NCBI GenBank assembly: GCA_031272615.1
Contig: JAISTL010000263.1
Span: forward strand, 1-7,582
DNA length: 7,582 bases
From: Methylobacteriaceae bacterium
Lineage (GTDB): Bacteria; Pseudomonadota; Alphaproteobacteria; Rhizobiales; Beijerinckiaceae
Direction of reading: 5' to 3'
Shown here: one piece after another, positions 1-6,938 of the stretch
How the letters are laid out: every line of letters begins with the position of its first letter
Numbering within the stretch: the stretch's first letter is position 1
Made by a program: the position numbers and the translations under genes
Notes under the pieces: model-generated
Seen by the model: only the letters and a program-made list of their open reading frames with translations
Told to the model about the DNA's origin: nothing
Database searches by the model: none

Positions 1-290
1 CCGTATTCGTCACGGACAGCGATGCCGTACCACTTTTCGCTTCTCCCGTCCCGGAACCGCCGCGTCATCGTGTACCGCAGCACGTTCACCCGGGTTCCGT
101 CCGGAAGATAGGACGTCGCTGCCGGATATTCCTCGACGGACTGGCGCTCAACGATCTCACCCGGGCAGTTACCCGGAACGTAACAGGCGCGCGCCGAGCC
201 GGAAAACACGGCAAGCGCAAGGAGAAACACCAGCGCGACAAATGCCGCGGGCTGTTTATACGTTCTGAAACCCGTCTCAATCATTCCCAT
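1..290 (-). CDS. Exported protein of unknown function, 5' part only (tandem paralogue of 437-1672)
   Basis: The gene runs off the left edge, leaving 96 codons. From the start the protein reads MGMIETGF, then a hydrophobic signal segment (about residues 15-31) ending in Ser-Ala-Arg-Ala before Cys. This suits signal peptidase I (A-x-A) rather than a lipobox, because no Leu/Val sits at -3. The mature part keeps the motif VERQSVEEYPAATSYLPDGT and a TRRFR...YGIAVRDE stretch almost identical to the neighbouring paralogue. It lacks 6 residues (18 bp) just after the Cys-Pro-Gly motif. The start is well fixed: an in-frame TAG at 309-311 rules out any upstream start, and GGGAGG (296-301) lies 5 nt before ATG 290. 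A second ATG at 284 is an alternative. Whether it keeps the membrane C-terminus of its paralogue cannot be seen. Function is not recognised. Confidence 0.75.
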   Translation of the reverse strand, partial: MGMIETGFRTYKQPAAFVALVFLLALAVFSGSARACYVPGNCPGEIVERQSVEEYPAATSYLPDGTRVNVLRYTMTRRFRDGRSEKWYGIAVRDEY

Positions 291-295
291 CTCCG

Positions 296-301
296 CCTCC
301 C
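296..301 (-). promoter_or_regulatory. Shine-Dalgarno GGGAGG deciding the start of the left paralogue
   Basis: GGGAGG on the minus strand ends 5 nt before ATG 290. With the in-frame TAG at 309-311 immediately upstream, it restricts the start to ATG 290 or ATG 284. The same site precedes the second paralogue at 1678-1683. Confidence 0.65.
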
Positions 302-349
302 GGTCGAGCTATCGGAATACCCCGGACACAACAGTTTCCGGCGCTTTGA

Positions 350-436: not shown

Positions 437-1672
437 TCAGAGCGCCGCCGGCGGAATGCCGGTGTCGATGACCTGCCGGTCGCGTTGCGCCCGGGTGCGG
501 CGGCGGATGAAGCCGAAGACCAGCAGCACCGGCAGCAGGGCCAGCTCGAAGTCATACAGCAGGTAGAGGAAGGCGAACAGGTCCGGCAGGCCGTTGCCGC
601 GGCGTATGGCTCCGGCAAGCAGATGACCGGAGGACACGGCAAAGGTCACGGCGGCGGAAAGGACGACAATCCAGTAGAACGTGACCAGCCAGTCTTCATA
701 GTTCCGCCGCAACGCGTAACGCACGAGAATGACAACCAACAGGCTGAAAATGAAGGCCGAATATCCGTTACCCAACGAAAACCCCGACGCCTCCCGCGCC
801 GAACTCCAGGCGCTGGTCAAAAACCCCACCGTCGGCAGGAAAACCAGCGCCGGCCACAGCGCCGAGGGCTGGTACAGGCGGAAGAACAGCTTGATCGGAG
901 CCGGGGCGGCAAGGAGAATGGCGGCCATGATCAGCACAAGTGAGATATAATCCCATGACGTCAGCAGCCGGCGCATGGCAGCCCGGATGTGGTCCGGCGA
1001 CGCCGGCTCGCTGATGAACCCGTCCAGGTTCTCCTCCGGGACGAAGACGCGGCGCGCATCGCCGCGCCGGGCGAAGGTCATCTCACCCGCCGGTTCGCCG
1101 ACCACCGGAACCTCGGGCTCCGCAGCGCGCGGAGCGCGCACTGTCGCCAGAATCCGCGCCAGCTCCCCGGCGTCGGGCTTCAACACCAGGTCGTCGTCCG
1201 GCGAGTAGAACCAGCACGACAGGTAATCCGCCCCGCAGTCGCCGAGGATATACGGTTCGTTTCGTTCCACCGACATGGAACTGCTCTCCACCATGGACCT
1301 TGTTCTATTTATAAAATATTCGCTGAGTCGCGCCGACGCGGGGAAGGTCTCGGAAATGGTGCGGCCGTGTTCGTCACGGACAGCGATGCCATAACGCTTG
1401 TCCGTTCCTCCGTTCCGGAACCGCCGGGTCAGCGTGTATCGCAGCACGTTCACCTTGGTTCCGTCCGGAAGATAGGACGTCGCCGCCGGATATTCCTCGA
1501 CGGACTGGCGCTCAACGGTGTTGGCGTAGACCTCGTCGGGGCCCGGACAAAAATCAATGGCCATACAGGCGTGCGCCGAGCCGGGAAACGCCGCAAGCAC
1601 CAGGAAAAACACCAGCGCGACAAATGCCGCGGGCTGTTTATACGTTTTGAAACCCGTCTCAATCATTCCCAT
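437..1672 (-). CDS. Exported domain plus five-helix membrane protein, unknown function
   Basis: This 411-aa protein is of no family I recognise. Residues about 15-35 form a signal peptide ending Ala-His-Ala before Cys36. A roughly 200-residue exported domain follows with four cysteines (Cys36, Cys42 and the pair in DCGADYLSC), enough for two disulfides. A Pro/Glu-rich linker leads to five predicted membrane segments at about 242-260, 271-289, 303-320, 328-352 and 365-388, then a basic tail (RRRTRAQRDRQ). An Arg-rich end after the last helix suggests a cytoplasmic C-terminus. The frame is open upstream to a GTG at 1711, but I prefer ATG 1672: GGGAGG lies 5 nt before it, and the paralogue has an in-frame stop where the longer reading would begin. 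ATG 1666 is also possible. It lies 154 bp downstream of the Sel1-repeat gene and 146 bp upstream of its paralogue, all co-directional. A sensor or transport-accessory role would be guesswork. Confidence 0.8.
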   Translation of the reverse strand: MGMIETGFKTYKQPAAFVALVFFLVLAAFPGSAHACMAIDFCPGPDEVYANTVERQSVEEYPAATSYLPDGTKVNVLRYTLTRRFRNGGTDKRYGIAVRDEHGRTISETFPASARLSEYFINRTRSMVESSSMSVERNEPYILGDCGADYLSCWFYSPDDDLVLKPDAGELARILATVRAPRAAEPEVPVVGEPAGEMTFARRGDARRVFVPEENLDGFISEPASPDHIRAAMRRLLTSWDYISLVLIMAAILLAAPAPIKLFFRLYQPSALWPALVFLPTVGFLTSAWSSAREASGFSLGNGYSAFIFSLLVVILVRYALRRNYEDWLVTFYWIVVLSAAVTFAVSSGHLLAGAIRRGNGLPDLFAFLYLLYDFELALLPVLLVFGFIRRRTRAQRDRQVIDTGIPPAAL

Positions 1673-1677
1673 CTCCG

Positions 1678-1683
1678 CCTCCC
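1678..1683 (-). promoter_or_regulatory. Shine-Dalgarno GGGAGG for the 437-1672 gene
   Basis: GGGAGG ends 5 nt upstream of ATG 1672. The alternative GTG at 1711 has no comparable site, so this site favours the shorter protein. Confidence 0.6.
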
Positions 1684-1731
1684 GGTCGAGCCATTGGAAT
1701 ACCCCGGTCACAACAGTTGCCGGGTCTTTGA

Positions 1732-1826: not shown

Positions 1827-2915
1827 TTACCGATCAACGAGATTCAGCAGGTCCCGCGCCAGGCTGTCGCCCTGCTCCGCCGCCTTGCTCAGCCAGTAGA
1901 ACCCCTGTTCCTCATCCTTGGCGACGCCCTCGCCTGAATAGCAGGCCACCGCCAGATTGTACTGGGCGGTGGCCAGGCCCTGCTCCGCCGCCCGGCGGAA
2001 CCACACCGCCGCCCGGGCGTAATCACGCTTCAGCCCCAAACCCTTGGCGTACATGATGCCGAGGCGATCCTGCGCCTCGGGGTTGTTCTGCTCCGCCGCC
2101 CTGCGCAGCCACGTCACGGCCTTGTTGAAATCCTGCCGCACCGGCCCGTCTTCCAGATACATGAGGCCGAGCTTGAACTGCGAGGCCGCGTCGCCGGCCG
2201 TCGCCTGCTGCTGCAGAGCGTAGAAGGCCTGCTCCTCTTCGGAGGAAACGGTCGTATCCTTCAGGTCCTGCCCGTAGCGCAACCGCAATCGGGCAGTGTC
2301 GGCGTCCATGCGTTCGGCCGCCTTGCCCAGCCAGTAGTCCGACTGCGCCTTGTCCCGCGGCACGCCCCGGCCTTCGGCATACATCAGGCTGAGGGCGATT
2401 TGAGCCTGGAGCACGCCCCGTTCCGCCGCCTTGAGAAACCACTCCGCCGCCTGCCTGTCATCCCGCGGCACCCCTTTGCCCTCGGCGTAACGTTGGGCCA
2501 GATAGGTCTGGGCTTCGGCATTGCCCTGCTCGGCGGCCTTGCGATACCAGAACACCGCCTGCGCGTCATCGCGGGGAATGCCGCGGCCTTCGGCATACAT
2601 GACTCCGAGATTGCGCTGCGCCAGGGCGACATTGCGCTCGGCGGCGCTGCTGAACCAGTTGAACGCCTGCTCGTCGCTTTGCGGAACATCCAGGCCCTGC
2701 TGATAAATCACACCGAGATTGTACTGCGCCTCGACGCTGCCCTGGTCGGCGGCCCGGCGGAACCAGAACGCCGCCTGCCCGTTATCCCGCGGCACGCCGC
2801 GCCCGCGGGTGTATCTCAGCCCGAGGTCCAACTGCGCGGTCAATTCCCCTTGCTCCGCCCTGGTTTCCAGAGCCGCGATCTCGGGAGAGAGGGAACGTTT
2901 GATGCTGTTCCCCAT
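1827..2915 (-). CDS. Sel1-like repeat (SLR/TPR-type) protein
   Basis: This 362-aa protein consists almost entirely of 36-residue Sel1-like repeats, each close to AQ-x-LG-x-MYAEGRGVPRD-x-x-QA-x-x-WF-x-KAAEQG. Full repeats start near residues 25, 61, 97, 133 and 169. A degenerate one covers about 205-242 (acidic TTVSSEEEQ), and three more start near 243, 279 and 315. Such repeats build a curved alpha-helical solenoid that binds other proteins. There is no signal peptide or membrane segment, so a cytoplasmic location is likely; many Sel1 proteins are exported, so this is a point of difference. The start ATG 2915 is supported by AAGGTG 5 nt upstream. The gene is read in the same direction as the two membrane paralogues downstream, with a 154-bp gap, so co-transcription is possible but not shown. 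Partner and pathway are unknown. Confidence 0.9.
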   Translation of the reverse strand: MGNSIKRSLSPEIAALETRAEQGELTAQLDLGLRYTRGRGVPRDNGQAAFWFRRAADQGSVEAQYNLGVIYQQGLDVPQSDEQAFNWFSSAAERNVALAQRNLGVMYAEGRGIPRDDAQAVFWYRKAAEQGNAEAQTYLAQRYAEGKGVPRDDRQAAEWFLKAAERGVLQAQIALSLMYAEGRGVPRDKAQSDYWLGKAAERMDADTARLRLRYGQDLKDTTVSSEEEQAFYALQQQATAGDAASQFKLGLMYLEDGPVRQDFNKAVTWLRRAAEQNNPEAQDRLGIMYAKGLGLKRDYARAAVWFRRAAEQGLATAQYNLAVACYSGEGVAKDEEQGFYWLSKAAEQGDSLARDLLNLVDR

Positions 2916-3094: not shown

Positions 3095-3199
3095 ATTGTA
3101 TAAAAAAATCAAGCGGCAAGTGAAAAACCGACACTTCCCACCGGATGCCGCCGGATTTTCGTGTTTGACTTCGCGCGTCACAGCAGCGCCCCGGGGTAC

Positions 3200-3343
3200 A
3201 GGTGACAGACCGGGTCACAGACCAGGTCACAGACCGGGTGACAGACCAAGTCACAGACCAGGTCACAGACCAGGTCACAGACCAACTGACAGACCAAGTC
3301 ACAGACCAAGTCACAGAGCAGGTCACGGGACAGGTCGCGGACG
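3200..3343. repeat. 12-bp tandem repeat (minisatellite), about 12 copies
   Basis: The unit consensus is AGGTCACAGACC. Nine units are close copies and three at the right end are degenerate. Each GGTCACAGACC carries a small internal dyad, GGTC-ACA-GACC. Differences between units fall largely at the third positions of the frame GTC-ACA-GAC-CAG (GTC/GTG, CAG/CAA), giving Val-Thr-Asp-Gln with Arg, Leu or Glu variants. That pattern suggests a coding past. The frame has only a GTG inside the array as a start and meets a TGA just upstream at 3166-3168, so I do not call a gene. Such tandem units are prone to slippage, so copy number may vary. Confidence 0.9.
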
Positions 3344-3391: not shown

Positions 3392-4180
3392 TCAGTCCCC
3401 GGCCACTTGAATCTCCACGTATCGGCTGTCGAAATGCTGCGTATCCCTCAGCATGTTGGACAGGATGACGGGCCCGTCGCCGACAGACGGGAAGTTCTCC
3501 CGGATCAGCTTCGGGAAATCCATCTTCGGCGTCAGTTCAGTCTGCAGACACGAGAACGTTCCCTTCGGGATGCGAAGGACCGACTGCTCACAAACCTCGG
3601 GCTGCAGAACCTGGACAAAAAAGGAGTAGGTCGCCGGCGTCCGTCCGGGATGCACCAGCATCCCCGCCGGGAAAATGGGGAGCAGGCCCATCTCCTTGGT
3701 TTTCCAGAACAGCGCCATGATTTCCCTCTCCCGTCTGGCGGGTTCCTCCCATTCTCCATGGAACGGCGCCACCACAAAGAACCGCTCGCCGATTTCCCGG
3801 GTAAAAACCCCTTCCTGCTCGTTGCACCAGCGGTTCTGTTCCAGATTCATCAGGTCGAATTCCGTCACCGCAAGCTTTTCCTTCATGGATGCGAGTTTGT
3901 CTTCTATCGCTTTTTTCCCATCCTTCAGCACCCGCCGCTGATCCAGGTTCCCGTCCTTGTTGATGTAGTTTTTCAGCGTATTCAACGGCAGCCCCACCTC
4001 GATGAAGAAAAGGATTGTATCCAGGGTCGCGATTTGCTCCAACCGGAAATACCGGTATTTTGTCTTGGAGTCGATCCACGCCGGCTTCAGAAGGTTCAGC
4101 TTCTCGTAATAGCGCAGCGAGTTGAGATTCACGTTGCGCAGTCCGGCAAATTCCCCGCTGGTCATAAAATCTTTCGGCAT
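3392..4180 (-). CDS. MerR-family transcriptional regulator, BmrR-like with GyrI-type effector domain
   Basis: This 262-aa protein has an N-terminal MerR winged helix-turn-helix (residues about 5-75) with the hallmark SLRYYEKLNLLKP and the wing YRYF, followed by LEQIATLDTILFFIEVGLPL. A charged helix (about 80-115) is the usual antiparallel coiled-coil dimerisation segment. The C-terminal 145 residues resemble the BmrR/GyrI small-molecule binding fold, with a PAGMLVHPGR loop and RIPKGTFSCLQTE. Cys119, Cys197 and Cys211 do not form a metal-sensor CxxC pattern, so an organic effector is likelier than a metal. I chose ATG 4180 because AAGGAG precedes it (11 nt, rather long) and it fits MerR N-termini. 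The frame stays open to ATG 4231 or 4222, which would add 17 or 14 residues. The gene is divergent from the operon starting at 4363, and its promoter overlaps the operon promoter. That layout implies direct control of the operon and autoregulation. Confidence 0.9.
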   Translation of the reverse strand: MPKDFMTSGEFAGLRNVNLNSLRYYEKLNLLKPAWIDSKTKYRYFRLEQIATLDTILFFIEVGLPLNTLKNYINKDGNLDQRRVLKDGKKAIEDKLASMKEKLAVTEFDLMNLEQNRWCNEQEGVFTREIGERFFVVAPFHGEWEEPARREREIMALFWKTKEMGLLPIFPAGMLVHPGRTPATYSFFVQVLQPEVCEQSVLRIPKGTFSCLQTELTPKMDFPKLIRENFPSVGDGPVILSNMLRDTQHFDSRYVEIQVAGD

Positions 4181-4273
4181 ATCGGTGACGGCTCCTTCCG
4201 CCTGTTCGATGAAACCGGGCATTCGGCACATTCCCGCCCGCTCGTATTGCTGGAATTTTGATCCGAATTCCCC

Positions 4274-4304
4274 TTGACCCTATTATTATAATAGACCTTA
4301 TAAC
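4274..4304 (+). promoter_or_regulatory. MerR-type promoter of the operon (19-bp spacer)
   Basis: TTGACC (4274-4279) and TATAAC (4299-4304) are exactly 19 bp apart. Good hexamers with a 19-bp rather than 17-bp spacer are the signature of MerR-activated promoters, where effector-bound regulator distorts the DNA to realign the hexamers. The start site would be near 4311, leaving a leader of about 52 nt before ATG 4363. Confidence 0.75.
4280..4294. promoter_or_regulatory. Predicted MerR-type operator palindrome
   Basis: CTATTAT-T-ATAATAG is a perfect 15-bp palindrome lying wholly inside the 19-bp spacer. Its centre (4287) is 2 bp nearer the -35 than the spacer midpoint. MerR regulators bind such dyads between -35 and -10. 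The site also contains the regulator gene's own -10 on the other strand. Confidence 0.65.
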
Positions 4305-4312
4305 CGTTGCAA
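4285..4312 (-). promoter_or_regulatory. Promoter of the MerR-type regulator gene
   Basis: On the minus strand TTGCAA (4312-4307) and a perfect TATAAT (4290-4285) are 16 bp apart, a good sigma-70 match. Transcription would begin near 4278. It overlaps the opposing operon promoter almost completely, so regulator bound there could repress its own gene. Confidence 0.65.
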
Positions 4313-4348
4313 AGCCGATTTCAACATCATTCACTTGAACCTGTAGGC

Positions 4349-4354
4349 AGGAGG
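4349..4354 (+). promoter_or_regulatory. Strong Shine-Dalgarno AGGAGG for the first operon gene
   Basis: A perfect AGGAGG lies 8 nt before ATG 4363, fixing the start of the 427-aa protein and implying efficient translation. Confidence 0.75.
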
Positions 4355-4362
4355 AATTTATT

Positions 4363-5646
4363 ATGACAATTCAAGTTGGTATCCCCGAAGCGGCGTGGGT
4401 TTTTCTTTCCGACATGGTCGACAATGTCGTCGCCATGAACGATTCCTGCAAGGAAGTCGTTATCCTGGCTCACAAGGACGGGCTGTACAACGGTCAAAAC
4501 CTGGTTGACGAAGAGGCCGTCGCCTGGGTGTCCACCGCGTTCGCCTCCCGCGGCCACCATGTTTCCATCCTGTGGGTCGATGAGCCCCAGAGGGTACACG
4601 AGTGGCGTTATCCCCCCGTGGTCAGGAAAGCCGTCGAGGGCTGCGACCTGCTGATCAACACCTCGTGGCAGATGCCCGTGGAAGAGATCGCCGATTTCCG
4701 CCAGCACGCCGAGGAGTCCCACAAAAACGACCCGTACCGCATGAGCGCGGAAGGCAGGAAGCATTTCCCGCATCATCCGGACAGGCAGCCGAAAGACTGC
4801 ACCGATTACGACTCCGGCACCTGGTTCGTCCGGTTGTTCCCGGTCACCGCCGCCTTGATGATGACGGAATGGGCCCAAACTCCCTCCGAGCTGGTCTACA
4901 TGGTCCGCCACATCTCCTCCGAGCCGTTCATGGCGCTGAACGAGCCCACCCTGTTCACCATGACCGACCCCAACGGCACGATTCTGACCGGATACACCAT
5001 CAATCCCACCAAGCGCGAAGGCATTCCCGGCATGCCCTATGACTCATGGCGCAAGGACTCCTCCCACTATCTGCCGGTGCCCGAGTGGGTCCATCCTCCC
5101 ATCAACTGCACGCATGTCAACGGCGAGCTGTATTTCGACTGCATGCTGCCGTGGTGGAGCATGTATATCGGCATCGAGCCCTACTGGGAAGAACCCATCC
5201 ACGTCACGGTCGAGGACTCCCGGATGGTCGCCATCACGGGCGGTCTGGAGGCCAGAAAGCTGTACGCTTTCCTGAAGGAGATGGAGACGAAGGTCGGCGA
5301 CAAGATCTGGCTGTTCGACACCTTCCACTTCGGCATCCATCCCAACGCCCATGTCACCAGGTACGAGTGTCCGCACGACATCTACCGCCGCACCATCGAG
5401 CATTCCGATTGCTGCAACGTTCACTGGCACATCGGCTCCGCCGGCGGCCGCCCGGGATACAACTTCTATCCTCACATCACCGGCGATCTCCGTCACTGCA
5501 CCCTCAAGGTCGGCGACAAGATGGTGTATGACAACGGTTGGCTGTGCTGCCAGGATGACCCCCGCCTCGCCGAAATCATGAAAAAATATCCCGGCCGTCC
5601 CGGTATCCCGGTGAACCCCAACACGCTGACGGAGATGAAGCGGTAA
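4363..5646 (+). CDS. M29 aminopeptidase / NicX-like metalloenzyme, divergent member
   Basis: This 427-aa protein has no signal peptide or membrane segment. The C-terminal half has the arrangement of the M29 aminopeptidase (AmpS/AmpT) and 2,5-dihydroxypyridine dioxygenase (NicX) fold: GELYFDCMLP, then EDSRMVAITGGLEARKL (about 284-300), HFGIHPNAH (322-330), HWHIGSAGGRPG (354-365), and YPHITGDL (369-376) before KVGDKMVYDNG. In that fold the last block usually reads H-x-D, with both as metal ligands; here it is His371-Ile-Thr373. Candidate ligands are His326, His354, His356 and His371. There are eleven Cys, including vicinal pairs 350-351 and 395-396. Cell location should be the cytoplasm. It is the first gene of the MerR-controlled operon, followed 128 bp later by a lactonase. 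Family placement is by remembered motifs, so peptidase, ring-cleaving dioxygenase or another metal-dependent activity all remain open. Confidence 0.7.
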   Translation: MTIQVGIPEAAWVFLSDMVDNVVAMNDSCKEVVILAHKDGLYNGQNLVDEEAVAWVSTAFASRGHHVSILWVDEPQRVHEWRYPPVVRKAVEGCDLLINTSWQMPVEEIADFRQHAEESHKNDPYRMSAEGRKHFPHHPDRQPKDCTDYDSGTWFVRLFPVTAALMMTEWAQTPSELVYMVRHISSEPFMALNEPTLFTMTDPNGTILTGYTINPTKREGIPGMPYDSWRKDSSHYLPVPEWVHPPINCTHVNGELYFDCMLPWWSMYIGIEPYWEEPIHVTVEDSRMVAITGGLEARKLYAFLKEMETKVGDKIWLFDTFHFGIHPNAHVTRYECPHDIYRRTIEHSDCCNVHWHIGSAGGRPGYNFYPHITGDLRHCTLKVGDKMVYDNGWLCCQDDPRLAEIMKKYPGRPGIPVNPNTLTEMKR

Positions 5647-5774: not shown

Positions 5775-6938
5775 ATGAGTAGAACAATTGCTTATGTCGG
5801 CCGCGGCAACGGCGGTATCGACGTTTTCGAGATCGGCGAGGGCAGCAAAACCATCACCCCGTTGAACAACGGCAGCGTCGGGACTCCCGGTTACGCCGGT
5901 TTTCTGGCGTATGCCAAGGGCACAAGAACCCTTTATGCCGTTGACGAGCGCAAGGATGCCGGCCGCAATGCGCCGAACCCCACTACCGTCATGGCGTTCA
6001 GAGTCGACCCGGAGACCGCGGCTCTGACCTTCCTCAACAAACAGCCCACCATCGGCTGTTCCTGCGCGTCCGTCTGCGTCGGTCCTGACGAAAAATATGT
6101 GTTCACCGCCAACCACGGCAAGTTCGATTTTGTCATCAAGGCGGTGGAAACGACCGACGGCAAGTGGACCAACCGGTTCGTCTATGATGACTCCACGGTT
6201 GTCCAGTATCCGGTGGCCGAAGACGGCTCGTTGGAGCCCGCGTGTGACTGCTTCGTCCTGACCGGCCACGGCCTGGACCCCAACAGCTCGCCTCAGGCGG
6301 GCGGCCACTCTCAGGCGAGTGCTCACGCCCACATCGCCATCGTCGACCCCTCCGGCAAGTTCCTGCTGGTGTGCGAGAAGGCGAGCGAGAAGGTCTATGT
6401 CTTCCGTTTGGGCAGCGACCGGCTGGTTCCGGTATCCATCTATCAGGCGCCTCTGGGCACCGGCCCGCGTCACTGCGCATTCGACCGGAACGGTCATATG
6501 TTCATGACCTCGGAATTTTCCTCCGAGATCTGGGGCTTCGATTTCAATGACGAAAGCGGCATCCTGACGTTCAACAACAAGCAATCGACCATCGCCCCCG
6601 GCTTCACCGGGCGCAATGAACTGGCGACCCTGCAGATTACTCCCGACGGGAAGATGGTTTTCGTCAACAACCGCGGCGAGGACACCATCGCCGGTTTCGG
6701 CATCGCCGCCGACGGCTCCCTGACCAAACTGTCCGCCACTCCCGTCGGCAAGTGTCCCGCCGACCCGAAGGACGCCGTTCGCGACCTTCAGCTCATGCCC
6801 GACGGCAAAGTGCTGCTGGTTCCCGTTCGTCCCGACGATGTCCTGCGCGCCTACGCGATCGGCGAAGACGGCACCTTGACCCCCATCACGGAGGCCCCGG
6901 TCTCCGACCCGGTCAACATATGCCTGGTGGAACTGTGA
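5775..6938 (+). CDS. YbhE/CMLE-type seven-bladed beta-propeller lactonase family protein
   Basis: This 387-aa protein has the usual length of the lactonase (6-phosphogluconolactonase YbhE / 3-carboxymuconate cyclase) family. Blade-like repeats end in phrases such as YVFRLGSD, WGFDFNDESGILT, IAGFGIAADGSLTKL and RAYAIGEDGTLTPI. Family hallmarks are present: SAHAHIAIVDPSGKFLLV (182-199), GTGPRH (228-233), TSEFSSEIWGF (245-255) and NNRGEDTIAGF (298-308). His184, Arg232, Glu247 and Arg300 match the His/Arg/Glu/Arg set proposed as the active site of the fungal muconate cyclase. An insertion around 115-145 and the Cys-rich GCSCASVC (94-101) are unusual. There is no signal peptide, so it is cytoplasmic. 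AAGGAG lies 8 nt before ATG 5775. Its place after a possible ring-cleavage or hydrolytic enzyme suggests opening or closing of a lactone in the same pathway rather than the pentose phosphate step; that is inference. Confidence 0.88.
   Translation: MSRTIAYVGRGNGGIDVFEIGEGSKTITPLNNGSVGTPGYAGFLAYAKGTRTLYAVDERKDAGRNAPNPTTVMAFRVDPETAALTFLNKQPTIGCSCASVCVGPDEKYVFTANHGKFDFVIKAVETTDGKWTNRFVYDDSTVVQYPVAEDGSLEPACDCFVLTGHGLDPNSSPQAGGHSQASAHAHIAIVDPSGKFLLVCEKASEKVYVFRLGSDRLVPVSIYQAPLGTGPRHCAFDRNGHMFMTSEFSSEIWGFDFNDESGILTFNNKQSTIAPGFTGRNELATLQITPDGKMVFVNNRGEDTIAGFGIAADGSLTKLSATPVGKCPADPKDAVRDLQLMPDGKVLLVPVRPDDVLRAYAIGEDGTLTPITEAPVSDPVNICLVEL

What the first reader, a model, noticed from the sequence alone, without database searches (positions are those of the whole stretch)
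4274..4312. Complete divergent MerR control region with 19-bp spacer and perfect palindrome
Seen: TTGACC-19 bp-TATAAC facing the operon, a perfect 15-bp palindrome inside the spacer, and TTGCAA-16 bp-TATAAT on the other strand facing the regulator. Known: MerR activators work at promoters with 19-20 bp spacers by twisting the DNA. Inferred: effector binding to the regulator switches on the operon and the regulator controls itself. This gives an unusually precise link between an unknown pathway and its sensor. The AT-only operator half-site CTATTAT is not one I recognise.
Basis: partly seen in the sequence, partly recalled or inferred. Interest (0 to 1): 0.7.

Follow-up and report, generated by a model that had tools for sequence, protein, structure and literature searches.

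The report
Drug-sensor switch rewired to enzymes
A two-way bacterial promoter with a 19-base gap and a mirror-image site inside it also occurs, nearly letter for letter, beside related regulator genes in other bacteria, where it mostly faces drug-export pumps; here it would likely let a predicted drug-sensing protein switch on two predicted breakdown enzymes instead.

Summary
TTGACC (4274-4279), a 19-bp spacer and TATAAC (4299-4304) face the operon; CTATTATTATAATAG (4280-4294) is a 7+1+7 bp dyad in the spacer; TATAAT (4290-4285) faces the regulator. The architecture occurs once in the window and in 1 of 20,000 simulated regions.

So this is a BmrR-like MerR switch, with an operator string not found in the one text search made, facing a NicX-fold protein and a lactonase-type protein. 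Binding, start sites, ligand and substrate are untested. A known kind of switch with an unusual target.

The parts
4274..4279 (+). -35 hexamer TTGACC of the operon promoter
   Evidence: sequence; TTGACT 15, TTGACC 3, TTGAAC 1 in 19 sites
4280..4294 (.). operator dyad CTATTAT-T-ATAATAG, predicted regulator binding site
   Evidence: conserved in 18 relatives' loci
4280..4298 (+). 19-bp spacer between -35 and -10
4299..4304 (+). -10 hexamer TATAAC of the operon promoter
4285..4290 (-). -10 hexamer TATAAT facing the regulator gene, inside the dyad
   Evidence: exact TATAAT at the same offset in 12 of 19 sites
4307..4312 (-). -35 hexamer TTGCAA (or TTTGCA 4308-4313) facing the regulator gene
3392..4180 (-). 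BmrR-like MerR regulator gene, probable start ATG 4180 (ORF open to ATG 4231), 262 aa
   Evidence: Pfam MerR_1; model resembles BmrR; start by alignment and ribosome-binding site
4192..4199 (-). GGAAGGAG, probable ribosome-binding site of the regulator
4349..4356 (+). AGGAGGAA, probable ribosome-binding site of gene 1
4363..5646 (+). gene 1, NicX/M29-fold protein of unknown activity, 427 aa
   Evidence: homologues, model, fold match to NicX
5775..6938 (+). gene 2, 7-bladed beta-propeller lactonase-type protein, 387 aa
   Evidence: Pfam PF10282, E 3e-57; PDB sequence relatives

Best explanation
Window 4274-4304 is a MerR-type promoter-operator (TTGACC, 19 bp, TATAAC, with a 7+1+7 bp dyad at 4280-4294) that the divergently encoded BmrR-like regulator is predicted to bind and, when it binds an as yet unknown ligand, would likely untwist so as to switch on gene 1 and the lactonase gene. 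Shown here: the architecture, its conservation with this regulator subfamily, the subfamily's usual exporter neighbours, and the BmrR-like predicted fold with a GyrI-like C-terminal domain. Inferred: that a dimer sits on the dyad from one face of the DNA, holds the over-long spacer inactive without ligand, and bends and under-twists it with ligand so that the -35 and -10 become readable (the mechanism shown by others for BmrR and EcmrR). Inferred too: that the same bound dimer covers the regulator's own promoter, whose TATAAT lies inside the dyad, so that the regulator limits its own synthesis. The controlled genes differ from the relatives': instead of an efflux pump the switch faces a NicX-fold metalloenzyme-like protein and a beta-propeller lactonase-type protein, so the likely output is chemical breakdown of the sensed compound or of a related metabolite.
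Against: No binding, transcription-start or ligand data exist. 8 of 26 regulator loci show no such site (scores 13-16, as in shuffles): one upstream stretch is cut by the contig end, the others are mostly the more distant regulators. Among 26 further Lachnospiraceae loci not in the first set, 4 score 21 or more, and the rest, mostly more distant regulators, do not. The consensus used was drawn from the same loci and contains the TTTA after the spacer, so the 19 bp is partly built into that scan. The regulator-facing TATAAT follows in part from the operator letters themselves, so its conservation is not independent evidence. The window's right outer arm and its -10 (no T at position 6) are weaker than the relatives'. 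DNA of the window's closest relatives (54-71% identical regulators) could not be reached, so conservation of the site at gene-1 operons themselves is untested.
Confidence: 0.86

Rival explanations
1. The regulator binds the dyad but mainly as a repressor of both divergent promoters; ligand simply releases it, and the 19-bp spacer is read weakly without activation.
For: The dyad overlaps both promoters, so steric repression is possible. PMC1526738 reports a MerR-type palindrome with a classical 17-bp promoter in one genome and suggests repression without activation there (passage seen).
Against: The 19-bp distance holds in 18 of 19 sites; a plain repressor would not need it. PMC7722741 states that all 28 surveyed promoters of known MerR regulators have long spacers, with DNA distortion as the common mechanism (passage seen).
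Confidence: 0.08
2. The site is real but belongs to a mis-binned contig: the window would then come from a Bacillota or other bacterium, not from the Alphaproteobacteria-like bin, and no transfer between phyla happened.
For: Gene 1 is found in 1 of 100 relatives searched and 1 of 349 genomes of the phylum, the own bin each time; the neighbouring membrane protein in 1 of 60, again the own bin; site-bearing regulator relatives of known origin are Bacillota. The window is a 7.6-kb contig of a 344-contig bin that is 78% complete with 2.6% contamination.
Against: G+C 0.611 and tetranucleotide profile (correlation 0.954 with 11 readable contigs of the bin) fit the bin; the Sel1-repeat gene has weaker relatives on two other contigs of the bin.
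Confidence: 0.4
3. The dyad is a chance AT-rich sequence and the promoter letters are coincidental.
For: AT-rich promoter regions often hold short dyads.
Against: 1 of 20,000 simulations, conservation in 18 relatives' loci, co-occurrence with the regulator.
Confidence: 0.01

Closest known systems
BmrR / bmr promoter (Bacillus subtilis)
   Different: Regulator 20% identical in the structural alignment; operator core CTATTAT, whereas BmrR's core is GC-rich (recalled, not from a call); here it faces two enzyme-like genes, not an MFS pump; regulator and target are divergent.
EcmrR (Escherichia coli)
   Different: 16% identical; different operator; unrelated targets.
Site-bearing regulator loci of Bacillota (L011-L016, L018-L027, L029, L032)
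   Same: Same operator and spacing, same divergent arrangement, 29-47% identical regulators.
   Different: Facing gene is MATE in 10, MFS in 1, ABC in 1 of 18; gene 1 and the lactonase are in none of the 80 loci.
ZntR and MerR operators
   Same: Palindrome inside a 19/20-bp spacer; ZntR's ACTCTGGAG shares the outer ACTCT (PMC1526738, passage).
   Different: Different inner half-site, metal-sensing C-terminus, 20-bp spacer for ZntR.
NicX, 2,5-dihydroxypyridine 5,6-dioxygenase (for gene 1)
   Different: 15% identical; profile E 0.12 only; in that short alignment NicX His265 falls on a Thr two residues before gene 1's invariant His322, so the iron site is not shown to be shared.

Membership tests
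MerR family | N-terminal MerR winged-helix DNA-binding domain | tested here: met
   PF13411 36.6 bits against a cut-off of 21.6
MerR family | long helix for antiparallel dimerisation | tested here: met
   predicted helix 98-136 in a model of mean pLDDT 88.6; dimer itself not modelled
MerR family | target promoter with 19-20 bp spacer | tested here: met
MerR family | palindromic operator within the spacer | tested here: met
MerR family | regulator binds the operator and activates on effector binding | not testable with these tools
   needs footprinting and in vitro transcription
BmrR-like multidrug-sensing subgroup | GyrI-like C-terminal ligand domain | tested here: met
BmrR-like multidrug-sensing subgroup | binds several drug-like ligands | not testable with these tools
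   no ligand data; the sequence profile aligns to BmrR only as far as BmrR residue 235, so BmrR's ligand glutamate at 253 (number from the PDB titles, role recalled) could not be compared
NicX family (gene 1) | NicX fold | tested here: met
NicX family (gene 1) | iron ligands His265, Ser302, His318, Asp320 (PMC7910607, passages) | tested here: inconclusive
   only residues 220-277 of NicX align by sequence, at E 0.12; His265 falls on a Thr there
7-bladed lactonase family (gene 2) | PF10282 match | tested here: met
   E 3e-57 over residues 10-381

The most novel reading that the evidence does not exclude
A multidrug-efflux switch of Bacillota, regulator and operator together, was captured by another lineage and rewired from pumping a compound out to breaking it down: the sensor's ligand is the substrate, or a close relative of the substrate, of an undescribed NicX-fold enzyme and its partner lactonase.
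Probability: 0.27. Interest if true: 0.62.

Novelty: new member of a known kind. Interest (0 to 1): 0.46.

Why it matters
It ties an uncharacterised enzyme pair to a sensor whose structural class is well understood, so the sensor can be used as a handle to find the pathway's compound. It also defines an operator class (TTGACTCTATTATTATAACAGAGTTTAnnAT) for a BmrR-like subfamily, with which these regulators and their targets can be found in genomes, and shows the switch keeping its DNA code while its facing gene varies from exporter to enzyme.

Tried and rejected
Chance dyad: rejected. Multi-gene regulon: not supported; in 13 of 18 regulator genomes the operator is found once at up to 3 mismatches, and in 5 of 18 not at all because their sites differ by 4 or more. 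The exception found is L014, which has two sites 221 bp apart, the second before a small ORF. Idea that gene 1 travels with the regulator in sequenced genomes: not seen; 0 of the 80 loci encode gene 1 or the lactonase, and gene 1 is in 0 of 391 Clostridia genomes at E 1e-30, an answer that the tool warns proves little without a positive control. Plasmids: no match for gene 1. Viral contigs: gene 1 none; regulator one HTH-only match. The 21-mer pattern hit six viral contigs, but they lack the regulator, gene 1 and lactonase, and the hits are inside a coding frame in three and upstream of a small gene in three, so I set them aside. 16S to name the organism: none in the bin; rpoB used instead. 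A printed record of the operator: one text search for four strings, no paper; that library holds open-licence PMC papers only.

Footprint limits: I examined the 26 best of the 80 loci; the other 54, most of which match little beyond the DNA-binding domain, were dropped before the count. The regulators' tree used 60 rows; the fragments P0135 and P0143 and loci L017, L034, L035, L036 were left out, and the root is a midpoint for drawing only.

Full report
What is there. The window holds a minus-strand regulator (3392-4180, probable start ATG 4180), a plus-strand pair of genes (4363-5646 and 5775-6938), and between them the control region 4274-4312. The regulator matches Pfam MerR_1. Gene 2 matches the lactonase beta-propeller family (E 3e-57). 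Gene 1 has no Pfam or NCBIfam match at E 0.001; some of its homologues bear the precomputed Pfam accession PF26233, a model that did not appear when I scanned such a homologue here and whose name I do not have from any call.

The observation. TTGACC 4274-4279, 19 bp, TATAAC 4299-4304; dyad 4280-4294; TATAAT 4290-4285 with TTGCAA 4312-4307 on the other strand. In the whole window a 19/20-bp-spaced promoter with at least 5 of 6 matches in both hexamers occurs once, here. In order-1 Markov copies of 4181-4362 such a promoter arose in 370 of 20,000 and one with a 7-bp dyad inside in 1 of 20,000. With up to 3 mismatches the 15-mer is found nowhere else in the window, and in the own bin one other place matches with 2 mismatches.

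Conservation. The regulator search in the protein database gave 41 proteins including the window's own; 39 of them plus the window sequence were aligned. A scan of named genomes with that alignment returned 84 relatives, of which the best 80 were kept. I took the best 26 (L011-L036), which match most or all of the regulator, and scanned the stretch upstream of each regulator gene. In 18 of 26 the best match to TTGACTCTATTATTATAACAGAGTTTA had 21 to 27 of 27 letters; the remaining 8 had 13 to 16; in 1,040 shuffled stretches the mean was 14.3 and the largest 19. By record title 17 of the 18 are Bacillota and one is just 'bacterium'. The consensus came from these loci, so I made three further checks. 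First, spacing: over the 18 sites and the window, 19 bp is the best or joint-best distance to a -10 in 18 of 19 (sole best in 12), and A at position 2 with T at position 6 occurs in 18 of 19 at 19 bp, 8 of 19 at 22 bp and 0 of 19 at 17 bp; the exception at 19 bp is the window itself, TATAAC. The A is partly built into the scan, the T is not. Second, specificity: in the 18 regulator genomes the motif is found once in 13 and not in 5 at up to 3 mismatches, with no hit of the reversed control. In 391 Clostridia genomes it is found in two, G436 and G443, both already known holders, at the regulator's site; the reversed control had one hit. Third, more loci: of 30 loci from 397 Lachnospiraceae genomes, four repeat known sites; of the other 26, four have a site of 21 or more (L136, L149, L156, L157) and 22, mostly more distant regulators, do not. 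L138 and L139 show a different inner half-site with the same 19-bp frame.

Dyad. Pairing about the centre holds in 19, 19, 18, 18 and 18 of 19 sites at distances 2, 3, 4, 6 and 7, in 17 at 9 and 18 at 10, but in only 14 at 1, 8 at 5 and 11 at 8. Some changes are two-sided (L011, L014, L029), as expected of a dimer site; the sequences are related, so these are few independent events.

The regulator's own promoter. On the regulator strand an exact TATAAT lies at the same offset inside the dyad in 12 of 19 sites. Part of this follows from the operator letters. Better evidence is that in nine relatives the regulator match starts 19 to 24 bases from the TTGAC edge, so its transcript must begin in or before the operator. 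Self-repression is inferred from the overlap.

Descent. In a 60-row tree the window's regulator and 12 metagenome homologues, the three above included, form a clade with 100/100 support and a long stem (0.81), in the same half of the tree as several MATE-linked Bacillota regulators. The root is a midpoint, and forks around the clade are partly open, so descent from an exporter-linked ancestor is likely, not shown.

Host. The bin's rpoB is closest, among named hits, to Microvirga and other Hyphomicrobiales (82-83%), so the bin is Alphaproteobacteria-like. Composition fits, yet gene 1 was found in no other genome of 100 relatives or 349 of the phylum, and the regulator only as weak matches to its DNA-binding part in 6 others of 100. 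Transfer between phyla and mis-binning both remain open.

Verdict. A genuine BmrR-like MerR switch with an operator class for which the one text search made found no printed record, facing an uncharacterised enzyme pair. The kind of system is known; the target is unusual.

Noticed in passing
window 3199-3326: Tandem array of a 12-bp unit (CAGGTCACAGAC), 10.7 copies, between the Sel1 gene and the regulator gene, downstream of both.
   Followed up: partly
window 3-326 and 440-1711 (-): Two tandem copies of an unnamed membrane protein gene; the first, cut by the window end, is 78% identical to the start of the second, and the match contains one TAG. No match in 59 other relatives.
   Followed up: partly
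window 1827-2915 (-): Protein with 8 matched Sel1 repeats; weaker relatives on contigs C148 and C137 of the same bin.
   Followed up: partly
L014 4313-4343 and 4534-4564 (-): Two copies of the operator-promoter 221 bp apart beside one regulator, each before a short ORF.
   Followed up: partly
L106-L111: Six viral contigs hold TTGACYCTATTATTATAAYAG exactly; three inside a coding frame, three upstream of a small gene. Probably unrelated to the regulator.
   Followed up: partly
L011, L012, L021, L025: A gene that looks like a cytidylate kinase by its start follows the MATE gene in L011, L012 and L021; in L025 a Cytidylate_kin2 protein faces the operator directly.
   Followed up: no
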